Assembly: GCF_000306945.1 (NCBI RefSeq)
Contig: NC_018518.1
Coordinates: forward strand, 1,054,001 to 1,118,000
DNA: 64,000 nucleotides
Direction of reading: 5' to 3'
Source: Bordetella pertussis 18323
Lineage (GTDB): Bacteria > Pseudomonadota > Gammaproteobacteria > Burkholderiales > Burkholderiaceae_B
The number at the start of each line of letters is the position of its first letter. The first letter of the stretch is position 1. The notes under the pieces were generated by a model. It was given only the letters and a program-made list of their open reading frames with translations. It was not told the origin of the DNA and made no database searches. Positions 38,694 through 52,242 of this stretch are shown one piece after another. The translations under genes were made by a program, and so were the position numbers.

Positions 38694-38709
38694 TGGCGTT
38701 GCGGTTGGA
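38694..38709 (+). promoter_or_regulatory. candidate sigma-54 promoter of the flp-tad locus
   Basis: TGGCGT-N5-TTGGA has the exact -24/-12 spacing of sigma-54 promoters (TGGCRY-N5-TTGCW), 47 bases before the flp ATG. The locus ends with a sigma-54-dependent activator gene, which supports it. The normally invariant C of the -12 element is G here, so it may be weak or inactive. Confidence 0.4.
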
Positions 38710-38755
38710 CGCCGTTGACGAGTGAAGTCGTAACTACCTTATCTGGAGGCACAGC

Positions 38756-38932
38756 ATGCTTACCCAATTGAAGAACTTCTGGCGCGACGAGGAAGGCGCG
38801 ACCGCCATCGAATATGGCCTCATCGTGGGCCTGATCGCGGTCGTCATCATTGGCTCGGTGTCGCTGCTGGGCGAGACGCTCAAGGGCTTCTTCGACACCA
38901 TTCAGACGGAACTGAGCGCGGAAGCGCCGTAG
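38756..38932 (+). CDS. flp: Flp-type major pilin prepilin
   Basis: 58-aa prepilin of type IVc (Tad) pili. A short basic leader (MLTQLKNFWRDEEG) is cut after Gly14, followed by the pilin signature ATAIEYGLIVGLIAVVIIG with the conserved Glu-Tyr pair. The typical hydrophobic core and a small C-terminal tail follow. The ribosome binding site CTGGAGG precedes ATG 38756. It is the first gene of the tad locus. The gene looks intact, although several downstream assembly genes are broken. Confidence 0.93.
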   Translation: MLTQLKNFWRDEEGATAIEYGLIVGLIAVVIIGSVSLLGETLKGFFDTIQTELSAEAP

Positions 38933-39001
38933 TAGGGGGCCTGGCAGACGCTGGTCGGGCGCCCGCCCGAGGGTGCCGACGGCGTCGGCACGGAAGCAGG
39001 A

Positions 39002-48647: not shown

Positions 48648-48660
48648 GGCGTCTGTGTCC

Positions 48661-50829
48661 ATGAACGTCCCCCGCCCGTTGCGCGCGCGGCGCCGCCAGC
48701 GCGGCTCCATCCTGATCCCGGCGGCGCTGGCCATCCTGATCGGCGTGGCGCTGCTGGGCGCGGCGCAGCTGGGCTACTTCTTCTATATGAAGCGCGAGCT
48801 GCAGAAGACCGCCGATCTGGCCGCGCTGACCGGGGTGCAGGTGCTCAGCCCCGGCGACGAGGCCGCCTGCGCCGCCGCCGGCCAGGCCGTGCGGGCCAGC
48901 GTGCGCGCCAACCTGGGCAGCCGCGCCGACGACGGGCTCAGCATCGAGCCCACCTGCTGGCGCTGGGCCCGCGACGAAGCCGAACTGGCGCCGCGCTATG
49001 TGCGCGAACCGGCCGACCCCAGCGAACGCTACAACGCCGTGGCGGTGGTGCTCGGCATGCCGGTGCGGGCATTGTTTCCGTTCCTGGGCGGCCGCACCCT
49101 GGAAGTCGAGGCCATCGCCGCGCGCCCGGCCGATCCCATCGCGGCCTTCTCGGTCGGCACGGGCCTGCTGGCCACGGGGTCGGGCGAACTGACCCGGCTG
49201 CTCAAGCAGGTCGGGCTGGACATCGGCGGCACCGCCGTGCTGGGCTATGACATCGGCCTGGCGGGCGTGAAGATCACGCCGGCCGGTCTGCTCGATGCGT
49301 TGGGCATCGCGGTCCCGACCGACATTTCGGTGGCCGGCTTGAATCAACTGCTCTCGGCCAATGTCAGCGCGCTCGACGGCGTGCTCGACGCCGTGGTGCG
49401 CGCCGCCAGCCGCGACAGCCTGCTCGACGCCAACGTAGGCCTGGTGCAGGCCATCGAGACGGCGGTGGGCGTCAAGGACCTGGCGGTACGGCTGGGCTCG
49501 GAGACGGCCGAGCGCGCCGGCGGCCTGTTCGCCAACATCCAGGCGCCCGACGCCGCCTCGGCGCTCAATGTCGAACTCGACGCGCTGGAGGTGCTGGCCA
49601 CCGCCATCGGCGTGGGCACCTCGGGCCATGCCATCGCCTGCGGCGTGGGCGCCACCGCCTATACCTCGCAGATCCGCGTGCATGCGCCGCTCAGGCTGGA
49701 CACCGGCTCGCTGCTGGGCGGGCTGGTGCGGCTGGACCTCGACATTCCGCTTACCGTCGATGTGGTCAACGGCCATGGCACCATCGAGGCGCTGTGCCAC
49801 GCGCGCGACGCCGCCGGCCGCGACCTGGCCGTCGTCAGCACCCGCTCGTCGCTGCTCAAGATCTGCCTGGGCGGCCCGCCGGCCGGGCTGACGGGCCCTG
49901 AACTGGCCAACTGGCCATTCTCCACCACGGCCAGCTGCGACGAGAACCTGACGCGCAAGCGCCTGCTGGGGCTGGAGCTGAACCTGCTGGGCAAGCGCGT
50001 CAACCTCGCCTCGCTCAACCCCGACCCGCCGCTGGTCGTCCCGGCGCTGCAGACCACCAGCGAAGACGACTACTACGCGGGCCAGCGCCGTTCGCTGGGC
50101 AACGAACTGGCGCTGGGCGATACGGTGAAGGACCTGGTCGATGCCTTGCTGGCCGCGCTGATCGGCAACTCCCTGCAGGGCGGCGCGGGCCTGGGCGGCG
50201 GCGACCAGGGCGAATTGCGCAAGGACCTGGCCGGCAAGATCTGGGCCGACACCGCCGCCGAGGTGGCCGCCTGTACGCCCGGGGCGTCCGGCAAGGCCGG
50301 CTACGACTGCCGGCGTGCCCGCTGGTCGCGCGGCATCGAGAACATCGAGAACTATTCGAACGGCCTGACCGGTTTCCTGGGCGGGCTGAGCGCCAACACG
50401 CTGGGCCTGCTGGGCAACCTGGTGACGCTGGACGTGGTGGGATTGCTGGGCAACGTGGTCGGCCTGGTCGGCAACCTGGTCGATCTGCTGGGCGACATCC
50501 TGGGCGGCATCCTGGGCGTGCTGTTTCCCACCAACCAGTGCGCGACCTGGTCGCTGCTGGGCGGCTACCAGGGCAGCGAGGCGGGCTGCGTCAACGAGTT
50601 GGGCAAGGCCCTGGCCAACAGCACGCCGCCTTCCGGCGGCAATCCCCCCAACGCGATCGTCGTGTTGCTGGGCTATCTGCTCAAGCCGCTGGCCGACATC
50701 CTCAACATGATCGGCGCCGACCTGCTGCGGCCCCTCATCGAAAACGTGCTGGGCCTGCGCCTGGGCGTGACCGATGTGCACATGATGTCGATCGATTGCG
50801 ATGGCAAAGGAGTACAGCTTGTTTATTGA
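48661..50829 (+). CDS. TadG-like Flp pilus-associated protein
   Basis: 722-aa protein. The N-terminal basic stretch and membrane anchor (GSILIPAALAILIGVALLGAA) with YFFYMKRELQKTADLAALTG match the TadG/TadE-G-like family (DUF2134-type) near the end of tad loci. The large remainder is probably periplasmic and rich in Leu/Gly repeats, especially LGNLVTLDVVGLLGNVVGLV near 575-610. No von Willebrand domain was recognised. ATG 48661 is the natural start: the longer open frame upstream comes from the broken DUF3613 gene. Intact. Confidence 0.82.
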   Translation: MNVPRPLRARRRQRGSILIPAALAILIGVALLGAAQLGYFFYMKRELQKTADLAALTGVQVLSPGDEAACAAAGQAVRASVRANLGSRADDGLSIEPTCWRWARDEAELAPRYVREPADPSERYNAVAVVLGMPVRALFPFLGGRTLEVEAIAARPADPIAAFSVGTGLLATGSGELTRLLKQVGLDIGGTAVLGYDIGLAGVKITPAGLLDALGIAVPTDISVAGLNQLLSANVSALDGVLDAVVRAASRDSLLDANVGLVQAIETAVGVKDLAVRLGSETAERAGGLFANIQAPDAASALNVELDALEVLATAIGVGTSGHAIACGVGATAYTSQIRVHAPLRLDTGSLLGGLVRLDLDIPLTVDVVNGHGTIEALCHARDAAGRDLAVVSTRSSLLKICLGGPPAGLTGPELANWPFSTTASCDENLTRKRLLGLELNLLGKRVNLASLNPDPPLVVPALQTTSEDDYYAGQRRSLGNELALGDTVKDLVDALLAALIGNSLQGGAGLGGGDQGELRKDLAGKIWADTAAEVAACTPGASGKAGYDCRRARWSRGIENIENYSNGLTGFLGGLSANTLGLLGNLVTLDVVGLLGNVVGLVGNLVDLLGDILGGILGVLFPTNQCATWSLLGGYQGSEAGCVNELGKALANSTPPSGGNPPNAIVVLLGYLLKPLADILNMIGADLLRPLIENVLGLRLGVTDVHMMSIDCDGKGVQLVY

Positions 50830-50850
50830 TTCGACTTTCCGGAGGCACAC

Positions 50851-52242
50851 ATGAGCGACCAGGCACCGGCTTGCGACGCTGTCGATGTGTATGTCTGGGA
50901 AGGCACTTCGGACATCGCCTTTCGCGCCGAGCGCGCCCTGGCCGGTTATGAGGCGACGGTCATCCACGTCGACAATTCGGTTGCCCTGCCGCCGTCGCGC
51001 GACGCGGCGCGTCCGGCCGTGGGGCTGGTGTCGGTCAGCGTCATGGGCGATGCGCGCTTTGCCGGATTCGACTGGCTGGCCACCCAGGGCATCCCGGTGA
51101 TCTGGGTGGCCGGCGAGGAGCGCAACCACGATCCGCGCTACTACGCGCCGGCGTACTCGTACACCTTGCCCTTGGCCTTCACCGGCGCCGAGCTGCGCCG
51201 CCTGCTGTTCCGGCTGGCCGGCGTGGCGCGCGCGGCGGCCGTCGACGAACCGCGCCCGGCGCCTGCGATGATCGCGGTTTCGCCCGCCATGCGCGGCCTG
51301 CTGGCCGAGGCCGAGATGTTCGCCGACGCGCGCGCCAACGTGCTGGTCCATGGCGAGACCGGCGTCGGCAAGGAGCGCATCGCGCGCCTGCTGCACGACC
51401 AGTCGTCCTGGGCCGGCGGACCGTTCGTGGCGGTGAACTGCGGCGCCATTCCGGAAGGCCTGTTCGAGGCCCATTTCTTCGGTCACGCCAAGGGCGCGTT
51501 CACCGGCGCCGTCGGCGCGCACAAAGGCTACTTCGAGCAAGCCAGCGGCGGCACGCTGTTCCTGGACGAAATCGGCGACCTGCCTTCGTACCAGCAGGTC
51601 AAGCTGCTGCGCGTGCTCGAGCAAAGCTCGGTGACGCGGCTCGGCTCCACCGTGGCGATCCCGGTCGAGTTCCGGCTGGTCGCGGCGACCAACAAGGACT
51701 TGCGCGCCCTGGTGGCGCAGGGCGAGTTCCGCGCCGACCTGTACTATCGCCTGGCCGTCATCGAGCTGCACATTCCCAATCTCGAAGCGCGCGGCGCCGC
51801 CGAAAAAACGGCGATCTTCGCCGCCTTGCTCAGGCAGCAGGGCATCGAGGACGAGCCGCCGGCCTGGCTGTTGCAGCGCGTGGCCGCCGCGCGCTATCCG
51901 GGCAACGTGCGCGAGCTGTCGAACCTGGCCGAACGCGTCGCCATACTGCGGCGCCAATTGCGCGCCTGGGACCAGCCGCGCATCGAGCAGGTGTTCGAGC
52001 GCCACGCCCAGGCCACCCCGCTGGCGCCCGCCACCCCCGGCGATGCCGACGCGCCGGCCTTCAACGCGGCCGAGCGCGCCGAGCGCGAGCGCGTGCTGGC
52101 CGCCCTGGAGGCCAATGGCTGGCGCCGCCAGGACACCGCGCACCACCTGGGGATCAGCCGCAAAGTGCTGTGGGAGAAAATGCGCAAGCTGCGGCTGGGC
52201 GAAGCGCAGGCCGAAACGGCCGATGGCGTGGCCGATCCGTAA
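50851..52242 (+). CDS. sigma-54-dependent transcriptional activator (NtrC family) of the tad locus
   Basis: 463-aa regulator. An N-terminal 120-residue domain resembles a receiver fold but lacks obvious acidic-pocket motifs. It is followed by an AAA+ domain: Walker A GETGVGKERIARL, the sigma-54-contacting GAFTGA, Walker B GGTLFLDEIGDLP and the R-finger region FRADLYYRLAV. A Fis-type helix-turn-helix (ALEANGWRRQDTAHHLGISR) ends it. The ribosome binding site CCGGAGG precedes ATG 50851. Its place at the end of the tad cluster and the sigma-54-like promoter before flp suggest it activates pilus genes. Confidence 0.9.
   Translation: MSDQAPACDAVDVYVWEGTSDIAFRAERALAGYEATVIHVDNSVALPPSRDAARPAVGLVSVSVMGDARFAGFDWLATQGIPVIWVAGEERNHDPRYYAPAYSYTLPLAFTGAELRRLLFRLAGVARAAAVDEPRPAPAMIAVSPAMRGLLAEAEMFADARANVLVHGETGVGKERIARLLHDQSSWAGGPFVAVNCGAIPEGLFEAHFFGHAKGAFTGAVGAHKGYFEQASGGTLFLDEIGDLPSYQQVKLLRVLEQSSVTRLGSTVAIPVEFRLVAATNKDLRALVAQGEFRADLYYRLAVIELHIPNLEARGAAEKTAIFAALLRQQGIEDEPPAWLLQRVAAARYPGNVRELSNLAERVAILRRQLRAWDQPRIEQVFERHAQATPLAPATPGDADAPAFNAAERAERERVLAALEANGWRRQDTAHHLGISRKVLWEKMRKLRLGEAQAETADGVADP

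What the first reader, a model, noticed from the sequence alone, without database searches (positions are those of the whole stretch)
38694..52242. A complete but decaying Tad/Flp type IVc pilus locus
All classic components are in order: flp, tadV, two tadE-like genes, rcpC, rcpA, tadZ, tadA, tadB, tadC, tadD, a DUF3613 gene, a tadG-like gene and a sigma-54 activator. At least tadV/tadE, tadA and the DUF3613 gene carry disabling lesions, while flp, the secretin, platform and regulator genes stay open. This suggests recent loss of an adherence pilus during host restriction.
Basis: partly seen in the sequence, partly recalled or inferred. Interest (0 to 1): 0.75.

Follow-up and report, generated by a model that had tools for sequence, protein, structure and literature searches.

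The report
Pilus gene nested inside its neighbour
In this whooping-cough genome a complete set of pilus genes is present with its motor gene broken, but one supposed break is really an old, conserved arrangement in which one pilus gene seems to be read in a shifted frame across the whole of its neighbour.

Summary
A complete 14-gene Tad/Flp locus lies at 38756-52242. Two lesions hold up: tadA and the DUF3613 gene are each split between frames; both parts share a frame in 9 of 10 and 8 of 8 comparable relatives. An intact TadA matching the window pieces 278/278 and 169/170 exists. Decay of B. pertussis type IV pilus loci is already published (PMC5045587).

The claimed tadV/tadE lesion is not a lesion. 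In 35 of 35 loci (window plus 34 named Bordetella/Achromobacter loci) tadE lies in the -1 frame of tadV, with a conserved prepilin site and almost never a nearby start codon. The -1 frame is open across tadV in 54 of 54 distinct sequences (0 stops; 51.2 expected by synonymous shuffling), while 12 ordinary tadV genes have 32 (36.1 expected). A Shine-Dalgarno-like site and NTG lie at its 5' end. I infer that tadE is a nested ORF, 39028-39930, with a ~145-residue out-of-frame leader removed at G|AYAVEF by TadV. Translation is not shown. A -1 frameshift is the main rival.

The parts
38756..38932 (+). flp, major pilin (58 aa)
   Evidence: PF04964, 70.1 bits; only Flp_Fap match in the genome
39011..39526 (+). 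tadV, prepilin peptidase; TTG start inferred (open from GTG 39002)
   Evidence: PF01478; open frame; start inferred from an AGGAG site and conservation
39017..39022 (+). internal Shine-Dalgarno-like site AGGGAG for the nested frame
39028..39930 (+). nested tadE reading frame (-1 relative to tadV), GTG start, 300 aa; about 145-residue out-of-frame leader plus TadE
   Evidence: ORF; PF07811 at residues 145-187; frame conservation
39457..39480 (+). prepilin processing site S-G|A-Y-A-V-E-F in the tadE frame
   Evidence: conserved columns with tadE-frame codon pattern from about -3 on
39932..40408 (+). second tadE-like gene
   Evidence: PF07811
40405..41346 (+). rcpC
   Evidence: PF16976, PF08666
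41402..42751 (+). rcpA, secretin
   Evidence: PF00263, PF13629
42757..44097 (+). tadZ
   Evidence: no Pfam match; 74-79% identity to 10 relatives
44106..45459 (+). tadA, assembly ATPase, BROKEN: 5' and 3' parts in different frames
   Evidence: PF00437 in two pieces; one frame in 9 of 10 relatives; intact copies exist
45456..46376 (+). tadB
   Evidence: PF00482
46385..47371 (+). tadC
   Evidence: PF00482
47371..48213 (+). tadD, TPR protein
   Evidence: PF13432 and others
48232..48647 (+). DUF3613 gene, BROKEN: 5' and 3' parts in different frames
   Evidence: PF12266 in the 3' part; one frame in 8 of 8 comparable relatives
48661..50829 (+). tadG-like gene
   Evidence: PF09977, PF13400
50851..52242 (+). 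sigma-54 activator
   Evidence: PF00158, PF02954

Best explanation
The locus encodes a Tad/Flp pilus whose motor TadA (and the DUF3613 protein) is broken in this strain, so no pilus is expected. The tadV-tadE pair, however, is intact and of an unusual, conserved design. tadE is an ORF of its own that starts at an internal Shine-Dalgarno/GTG (39028) about 17 nt after the tadV start. It runs in the -1 frame across the whole of tadV and ends as TadE. Its first ~145 residues are a basic, non-hydrophobic, out-of-frame leader, which keeps the N-terminus in the cytoplasm until the peptidase TadV, made from the same DNA, cuts at G|AYAVEF and releases mature TadE. Shown by sequence: the fixed frame relation, the lack of a near start codon, the open -1 frame, the Shine-Dalgarno/NTG, and the conservation of the processing site in the tadE frame. 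Inferred: that ribosomes start there, that the long leader is made, and that TadV cuts it.
For: Frame relation: tadE is in the -1 frame in 35 of 35 loci and in 48 of 48 intact overlapped loci of the family survey. In the 13 ordinary loci the relation is 0, 1 or 2, and an ATG lies within 90 nt upstream in 13 of 13, against 2 of 48 overlapped loci. Coding: column entropies of 35 loci show the tadE-frame codon pattern from about 3 nt before the [R/S]G codon, while tadV is still being read. Open frame: 0 stops in 54 distinct sequences against 51.2 expected by synonymous shuffling; ordinary tadV 32 against 36.1 (12 of 13 tested); the +1 frame is open in 0 of 54, the antisense frames in 0, 0 and 24 of 54. 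Controls: 0 of 465 overlapping windows of 140 codons in 11 other gene pieces of the locus are open in all loci, best 79%, against tadV open in 43 of 43. Onset: 35 of 63 loci have a stop in that frame within 90 nt upstream of the start. Start: Shine-Dalgarno energy <= -5 kcal/mol in 53 of 54 against 17% of 233 other NTGs. Leader: net charge +4 to +28, no membrane-like stretch.
Against: No expression data. GC-rich genes avoid -1-frame stops in general: nine control genes show 0.45-0.65 of the shuffled expectation, so the shuffle overstates the effect. Halved, about 25 stops would be expected in related sequences, by my rough estimate perhaps 8-10 independent events. The leader's amino acids are not conserved apart from what tadV imposes. 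The start codon is CTG (followed by GTG) in 4 of 54, and the Shine-Dalgarno is weak in 1 of 54 (L112, where my anchor may be off). tadV's own best start is the TTG 17-20 nt upstream in only 38 of 54. Two of 12 ordinary tadV genes also have no stop, and 3 of 13 ordinary loci have the 426 nt open. No annotated protein containing this leader was found, and prepilin leaders of this length are unknown to me.
Confidence: 0.66

Rival explanations
1. Programmed -1 ribosomal frameshifting: ribosomes reading tadV slip back one base and make a TadV-TadE fusion, which TadV then cuts from itself at the prepilin site.
For: tadE is always in the -1 frame in the overlapped class and almost never has a near start codon; the processing site sits directly after tadV's last conserved segment.
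Against: No conserved slippery heptamer seen by eye near the junction (not scanned by a tool). Slipping near the 3' end would not need the -1 frame to stay open over all of tadV, which it does. It does not explain the internal Shine-Dalgarno/NTG.
Confidence: 0.17
2. TadE starts at an NTG downstream of the processing site and is made without leader, so the conserved site is not used.
For: At least one database entry is called that way (P0002, 145 aa, starting MVFMVFF).
Against: [RS]G|xY[AS][VLM]EF is conserved with tadE-frame codon pattern upstream of those NTGs; it would have no reason to be kept.
Confidence: 0.06
3. The open -1 frame is a by-product of GC-rich codon usage and the true tadE start is a different, unrecognised one.
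For: -1-frame stops are rare in all genes here; control ratio about 0.5.
Against: No control window is open in all loci; ordinary tadV genes show almost no depletion, though at lower GC3 (0.63 against 0.83); stops appear upstream of the proposed start in 35 of 63 loci.
Confidence: 0.08
4. tadV/tadE is broken in B. pertussis.
For: Two frames at the junction.
Against: The same arrangement in relatives with otherwise unbroken loci.
Confidence: 0.02

Closest known systems
Tad/Flp (type IVc) pilus locus; 'Pilus A-C' of Bordetella (Linz et al. 2016, PMC5045587)
   Same: Pilus loci with frameshift decay in B. pertussis, decay in B. holmesii, and one locus (Pilus A) degenerate in B. avium and absent in B. 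trematum (passages seen); this agrees. Which of the three loci this is could not be fixed; Pilus A fits best.
   Different: The passages seen do not mention the tadV/tadE overlap.
Ordinary tadV-tadE pair (13 family loci)
   Same: Same neighbours, same kind of TadE processing site
   Different: There tadV stops before the [R/S]G codon and tadE has an ATG within 90 nt, so a short leader; no fixed frame relation.
Tad locus of Kerstersia gyiorum (PMC6461280, passages seen)
   Same: flp-tadVEF-rcpCA-tadZABCD order; tadABC reported 70-78% identical to B. pertussis
   Different: The passages do not discuss how tadE starts; its junction was not examined here.
Nested same-strand overlapping genes in bacteria (recalled, general)
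   Same: Two proteins from one stretch in two frames
   Different: Here the overlapped part would serve as a discarded leader, cut off by the protein of the other frame.

Membership tests
Tad/Flp type IVc pilus locus | Flp pilin with G|xxxxE processing site | tested here: met
   PF04964, 70.1 bits
Tad/Flp type IVc pilus locus | A24 prepilin peptidase TadV and TadE-type pseudopilins | tested here: met
   PF01478, PF07811 twice
Tad/Flp type IVc pilus locus | RcpC and secretin RcpA | tested here: met
   PF16976, PF00263
Tad/Flp type IVc pilus locus | TadZ | tested here: inconclusive
   No Pfam match; position and 74-79% conservation
Tad/Flp type IVc pilus locus | Intact motor ATPase TadA | tested here: not met
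   Split between two frames
Tad/Flp type IVc pilus locus | Platform proteins TadB, TadC and TPR protein TadD | tested here: met
   PF00482 twice, TPR
Tad/Flp type IVc pilus locus | Pili on the cell surface | not testable with these tools
   needs microscopy
Nested overlapping gene pair | Second frame kept open beyond chance | tested here: met
   strength limited by relatedness and codon bias
Nested overlapping gene pair | Own ribosome-binding site and start codon for the second frame | tested here: met
   by sequence only
Nested overlapping gene pair | Both frames translated in the cell | not testable with these tools
   needs ribosome profiling or proteomics
Programmed -1 frameshift cassette | Conserved slippery site before the junction | tested here: inconclusive
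   none seen by eye; no systematic scan

The most novel reading that the evidence does not exclude
In Bordetella, Achromobacter and three further genus groups the pseudopilin TadE is made from a reading frame that overlaps the entire gene of its own processing peptidase TadV. The out-of-frame ~145 residues act as a throw-away cytoplasmic leader that TadV removes: a conserved substrate-protease pair written in the same DNA, missed by annotation and mistaken for a frameshift pseudogene.
Probability: 0.6. Interest if true: 0.72.

Novelty: new variant of a known kind. Interest (0 to 1): 0.58.

Why it matters
If true, a Tad pseudopilin is widely mis-annotated: a TadE search (proteins of about 128-408 residues only) gave 116 hits at E <= 1e-8, none more than 64% identical to the window's TadE, although the window's TadA pieces have near-identical database relatives. 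A comparison that counts this junction as a pseudogene mark would be wrong, and one short stretch of DNA would code in full for a protease and the leader of its substrate, which makes overprinting and leader function directly testable. For B. pertussis 18323 it narrows the list of real lesions to the motor and one accessory gene.

Tried and rejected
Rejected: a lesion at tadV/tadE. Rejected on numbers: using the plain codon shuffle as the whole test of the -1 frame, since control genes also fall below it; I therefore used aligned control windows and ordinary tadV genes. Considered: a CTG at -138 in the tadE frame; it follows from a conserved Trp codon of tadV. A sigma-54 site within 400 nt upstream of flp: the strict pattern gave none in 34 of 34 named loci and, in the window, a looser one gave only a site 222 nt upstream; unresolved. 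Rfam: nothing in the window. One search pooled all loci under one name by mistake; it was repeated per locus, which is the one cited. The first TadV tree (76 rows, few columns, long branches) split the overlapped class in two; with L114 and L119, the two longest ordinary branches, left out and TadE added it is one clade, 97/87.9; a single origin is favoured, not proved.

Searches for prior description, judged from listings only: 'tadV, tadE, overlapping, reading frame' (12 of 281 papers listed), 'TadE, leader peptide, prepilin peptidase, overlapping genes' (7 of 7), 'Bordetella, overlapping genes, nested' (2 of 2), 'Bordetella pertussis, ribosome profiling' (8 of 15), and Tad in Bordetella: no title or abstract start points to this overlap. 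Only open-licence papers are held.

Rows left out of counts: B. holmesii (both frames broken) and G003 (tadE deleted) are not in the open-frame counts; duplicates were removed (63 loci to 54); L140 was dropped (motif not found); the automatic start finder misplaced L110 and possibly L112. One search scored 8000 candidates and listed 120 of 638.
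Full report
Where it is. The window is bases 1,054,001-1,118,000 of a 4,043,846-base genome; that size stands in the column of B. pertussis 18323 in a table passage of PMC3533505 (column order inferred). The locus runs from flp (38756) to a sigma-54 activator (ends 52242). Pfam identifies every expected component except TadZ. Upstream lies an MHYT-domain gene (37840-38658), downstream DUF2968 and DUF1178 genes.

The lesions. I compared the window's pieces, exactly as encoded, with the orthologous loci of 10 other Bordetella genomes. tadA falls into two frames in the window; in nine relatives both parts lie in one frame, and in the tenth, G003, whose locus is heavily deleted, the gene is damaged too. 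A database TadA of 451 residues, in a cluster seen on 541 contigs, the longest 5.34 Mb, matches the first piece at 278/278 and the second at 169/170, so intact copies exist very close by. DUF3613 is in two frames here and in one frame in the 8 relatives where both parts were found (in L033 only through the second-best hit). The other 12 genes are open. With the ATPase broken, pilus assembly is very unlikely (inference from the known role of TadA). A second, distant tad-like cluster of the genome (L042) codes for another CpaF-type ATPase, inside an ORF that also holds an FHA and a TadB-like domain, next to an IS481 transposase; I do not expect it to stand in for TadA.

Other damaged loci. It has breaks in the MHYT gene, tadV, rcpC, rcpA and tadG. 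G003 (3.72 Mb, probably B. avium by size and by the published description) lacks tadE to rcpC and parts of rcpA, tadC, tadD, tadG and the activator. G007 and G014 have no orthologue. Linz et al. 2016 already describe this pattern: three type IV pilus loci with frameshift pseudogenes in B. pertussis, degenerate in B. holmesii, one degenerate in B. avium and lost in B. trematum (PMC5045587, passages). The decay itself is therefore not new.

The junction that is not a lesion. In the window tadV (PF01478) and tadE (PF07811) lie in different frames and tadE has no start codon nearby. The nine relatives in which both genes remain look the same, and so do 34 named loci found through a TadZ alignment (9 Bordetella, 25 Achromobacter): tadE is in the -1 frame in 35 of 35 including the window; tadV's stop lies 70 nt past the [R/S]G codon in 34 of 35 (40 nt in L066); an ATG, GTG or TTG in the tadE frame within 60 nt upstream exists in 1 of 35 (L073). 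In a survey of 250 family genomes, 63 have a TadV match and I read all 63 junctions: 48 intact overlapped loci in 5 genus groups (g1, Bordetella, 9; g4, with named Achromobacter, 25; g6 4; g10 2; g16 8), one decayed (B. holmesii), one without tadE (G003), and 13 ordinary loci in 8 other genus groups. In the 13, tadV ends 11-93 nt before the [R/S]G codon, the frame relation takes all three values (2, 6 and 5 loci), and an ATG lies within 90 nt in all 13; among the 48 that is so in 2.

TadE is kept in that frame. In ungapped columns around the junction of 35 loci, variation up to about 9 nt before the [R/S]G codon is highest at tadV's third codon positions; from about 3 nt before it, the tadE frame's second positions vary least and its third positions mostly vary most, although tadV is read on for up to 70 nt. 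The processing site [RS]G|xY[AS][VLM]EF is therefore kept in a frame that has no start next to it. This is a pattern of column entropies, not a fitted selection model.

Where reading begins. The -1 frame is open across all of tadV. Over 54 distinct overlapped tadV genes it has 0 stops (51.2 expected when synonymous codons are shuffled within each gene; 54 open, 20.3 expected), while 12 ordinary tadV genes have 32 (36.1 expected; 2 open), at lower GC3, 0.63 against 0.83. Because GC-rich genes avoid such stops anyway (nine control genes have 0.45-0.65 of the shuffled expectation), I also asked whether any aligned 140-codon window of other genes of the locus is open in all loci: 0 of 465 windows in 11 gene pieces, the best 79%, against the one tadV window, open in 43 of 43. 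These windows overlap one another; by length they amount to about 28 independent ones. The +1 frame is open in 0 of 54 and the antisense frames in 0, 0 and 24 of 54. The opening has an edge: 35 of 63 loci have a -1-frame stop within 90 nt upstream of the proposed start, the nearest 27 nt away. At that edge lies a purine-rich site followed by GTG (46), ATG (4) or CTG (4), at tadV's first conserved Trp; the Shine-Dalgarno energy is -5 kcal/mol or lower in 53 of 54, against 17% of 233 other NTGs of that frame inside tadV. In the window this is AGGGAG-CACGT-GTG, 39017-39030. tadV's own best start, by the same measure, is a TTG 17 or 20 nt upstream in 38 of 54 loci; in the rest it is another codon.

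Mechanism proposed. One transcript carries two start sites about 17 nt apart. The first gives TadV; the second gives a 300-residue TadE precursor (39028-39930). Its leader has a net charge of +4 to +28 across 54 sequences and no 19-residue stretch above 1.76 on the Kyte-Doolittle scale, while TadE's own membrane segment reaches at least 2.22. This suits an N-terminus held in the cytoplasm, where the A24 peptidase's active site lies (recalled). TadV would then remove the leader at G|A. An origin is easy to imagine: loss of the short spacer and of tadE's start in GC-rich DNA, where the -1 frame is often open, with rescue by a start near tadV's own. A tree without the two longest ordinary branches has the overlapped class as one clade (97/87.9); a first tree with fewer columns and all rows did not.

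Limits. No expression data were available; a search for ribosome profiling in B. pertussis listed 8 of 15 papers, none of which looked relevant by title. A database search with the leader found no annotated protein carrying it (proteins of about 165-525 residues), and the TadE search found none above 64% identity; annotators have used a CTG start (P0001, judged from L045), an ATG within the leader (P0003) or a downstream start (P0002) instead. Programmed frameshifting remains possible, as does a start that I have not recognised.

Noticed in passing
L042 (own genome, 2,118,500-2,138,400): 5139-10382, minus strand: A second, distant tad-like cluster: secretin ORF, then one 915-residue ORF holding FHA, CpaF-type ATPase and TadB-like domains, next to an IS481 transposase.
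   Followed up: partly
   Followed up: no
L039 (G010, B. genomosp.
   Followed up: no
window 37840-38658: An MHYT-domain signalling gene stands just upstream of flp; it is also found there in several relatives and is damaged in G005 (B. holmesii) and G003.
   Followed up: partly
window 50851-52242: A sigma-54 activator closes the locus, yet no strict sigma-54 promoter pattern was found within 400 nt upstream of flp in 34 of 34 named loci.
   Followed up: partly
L041 (G003), 5435-11833: In this small genome the same locus has several internal deletions, one of which joins tadV to the last third of rcpA.
   Followed up: no
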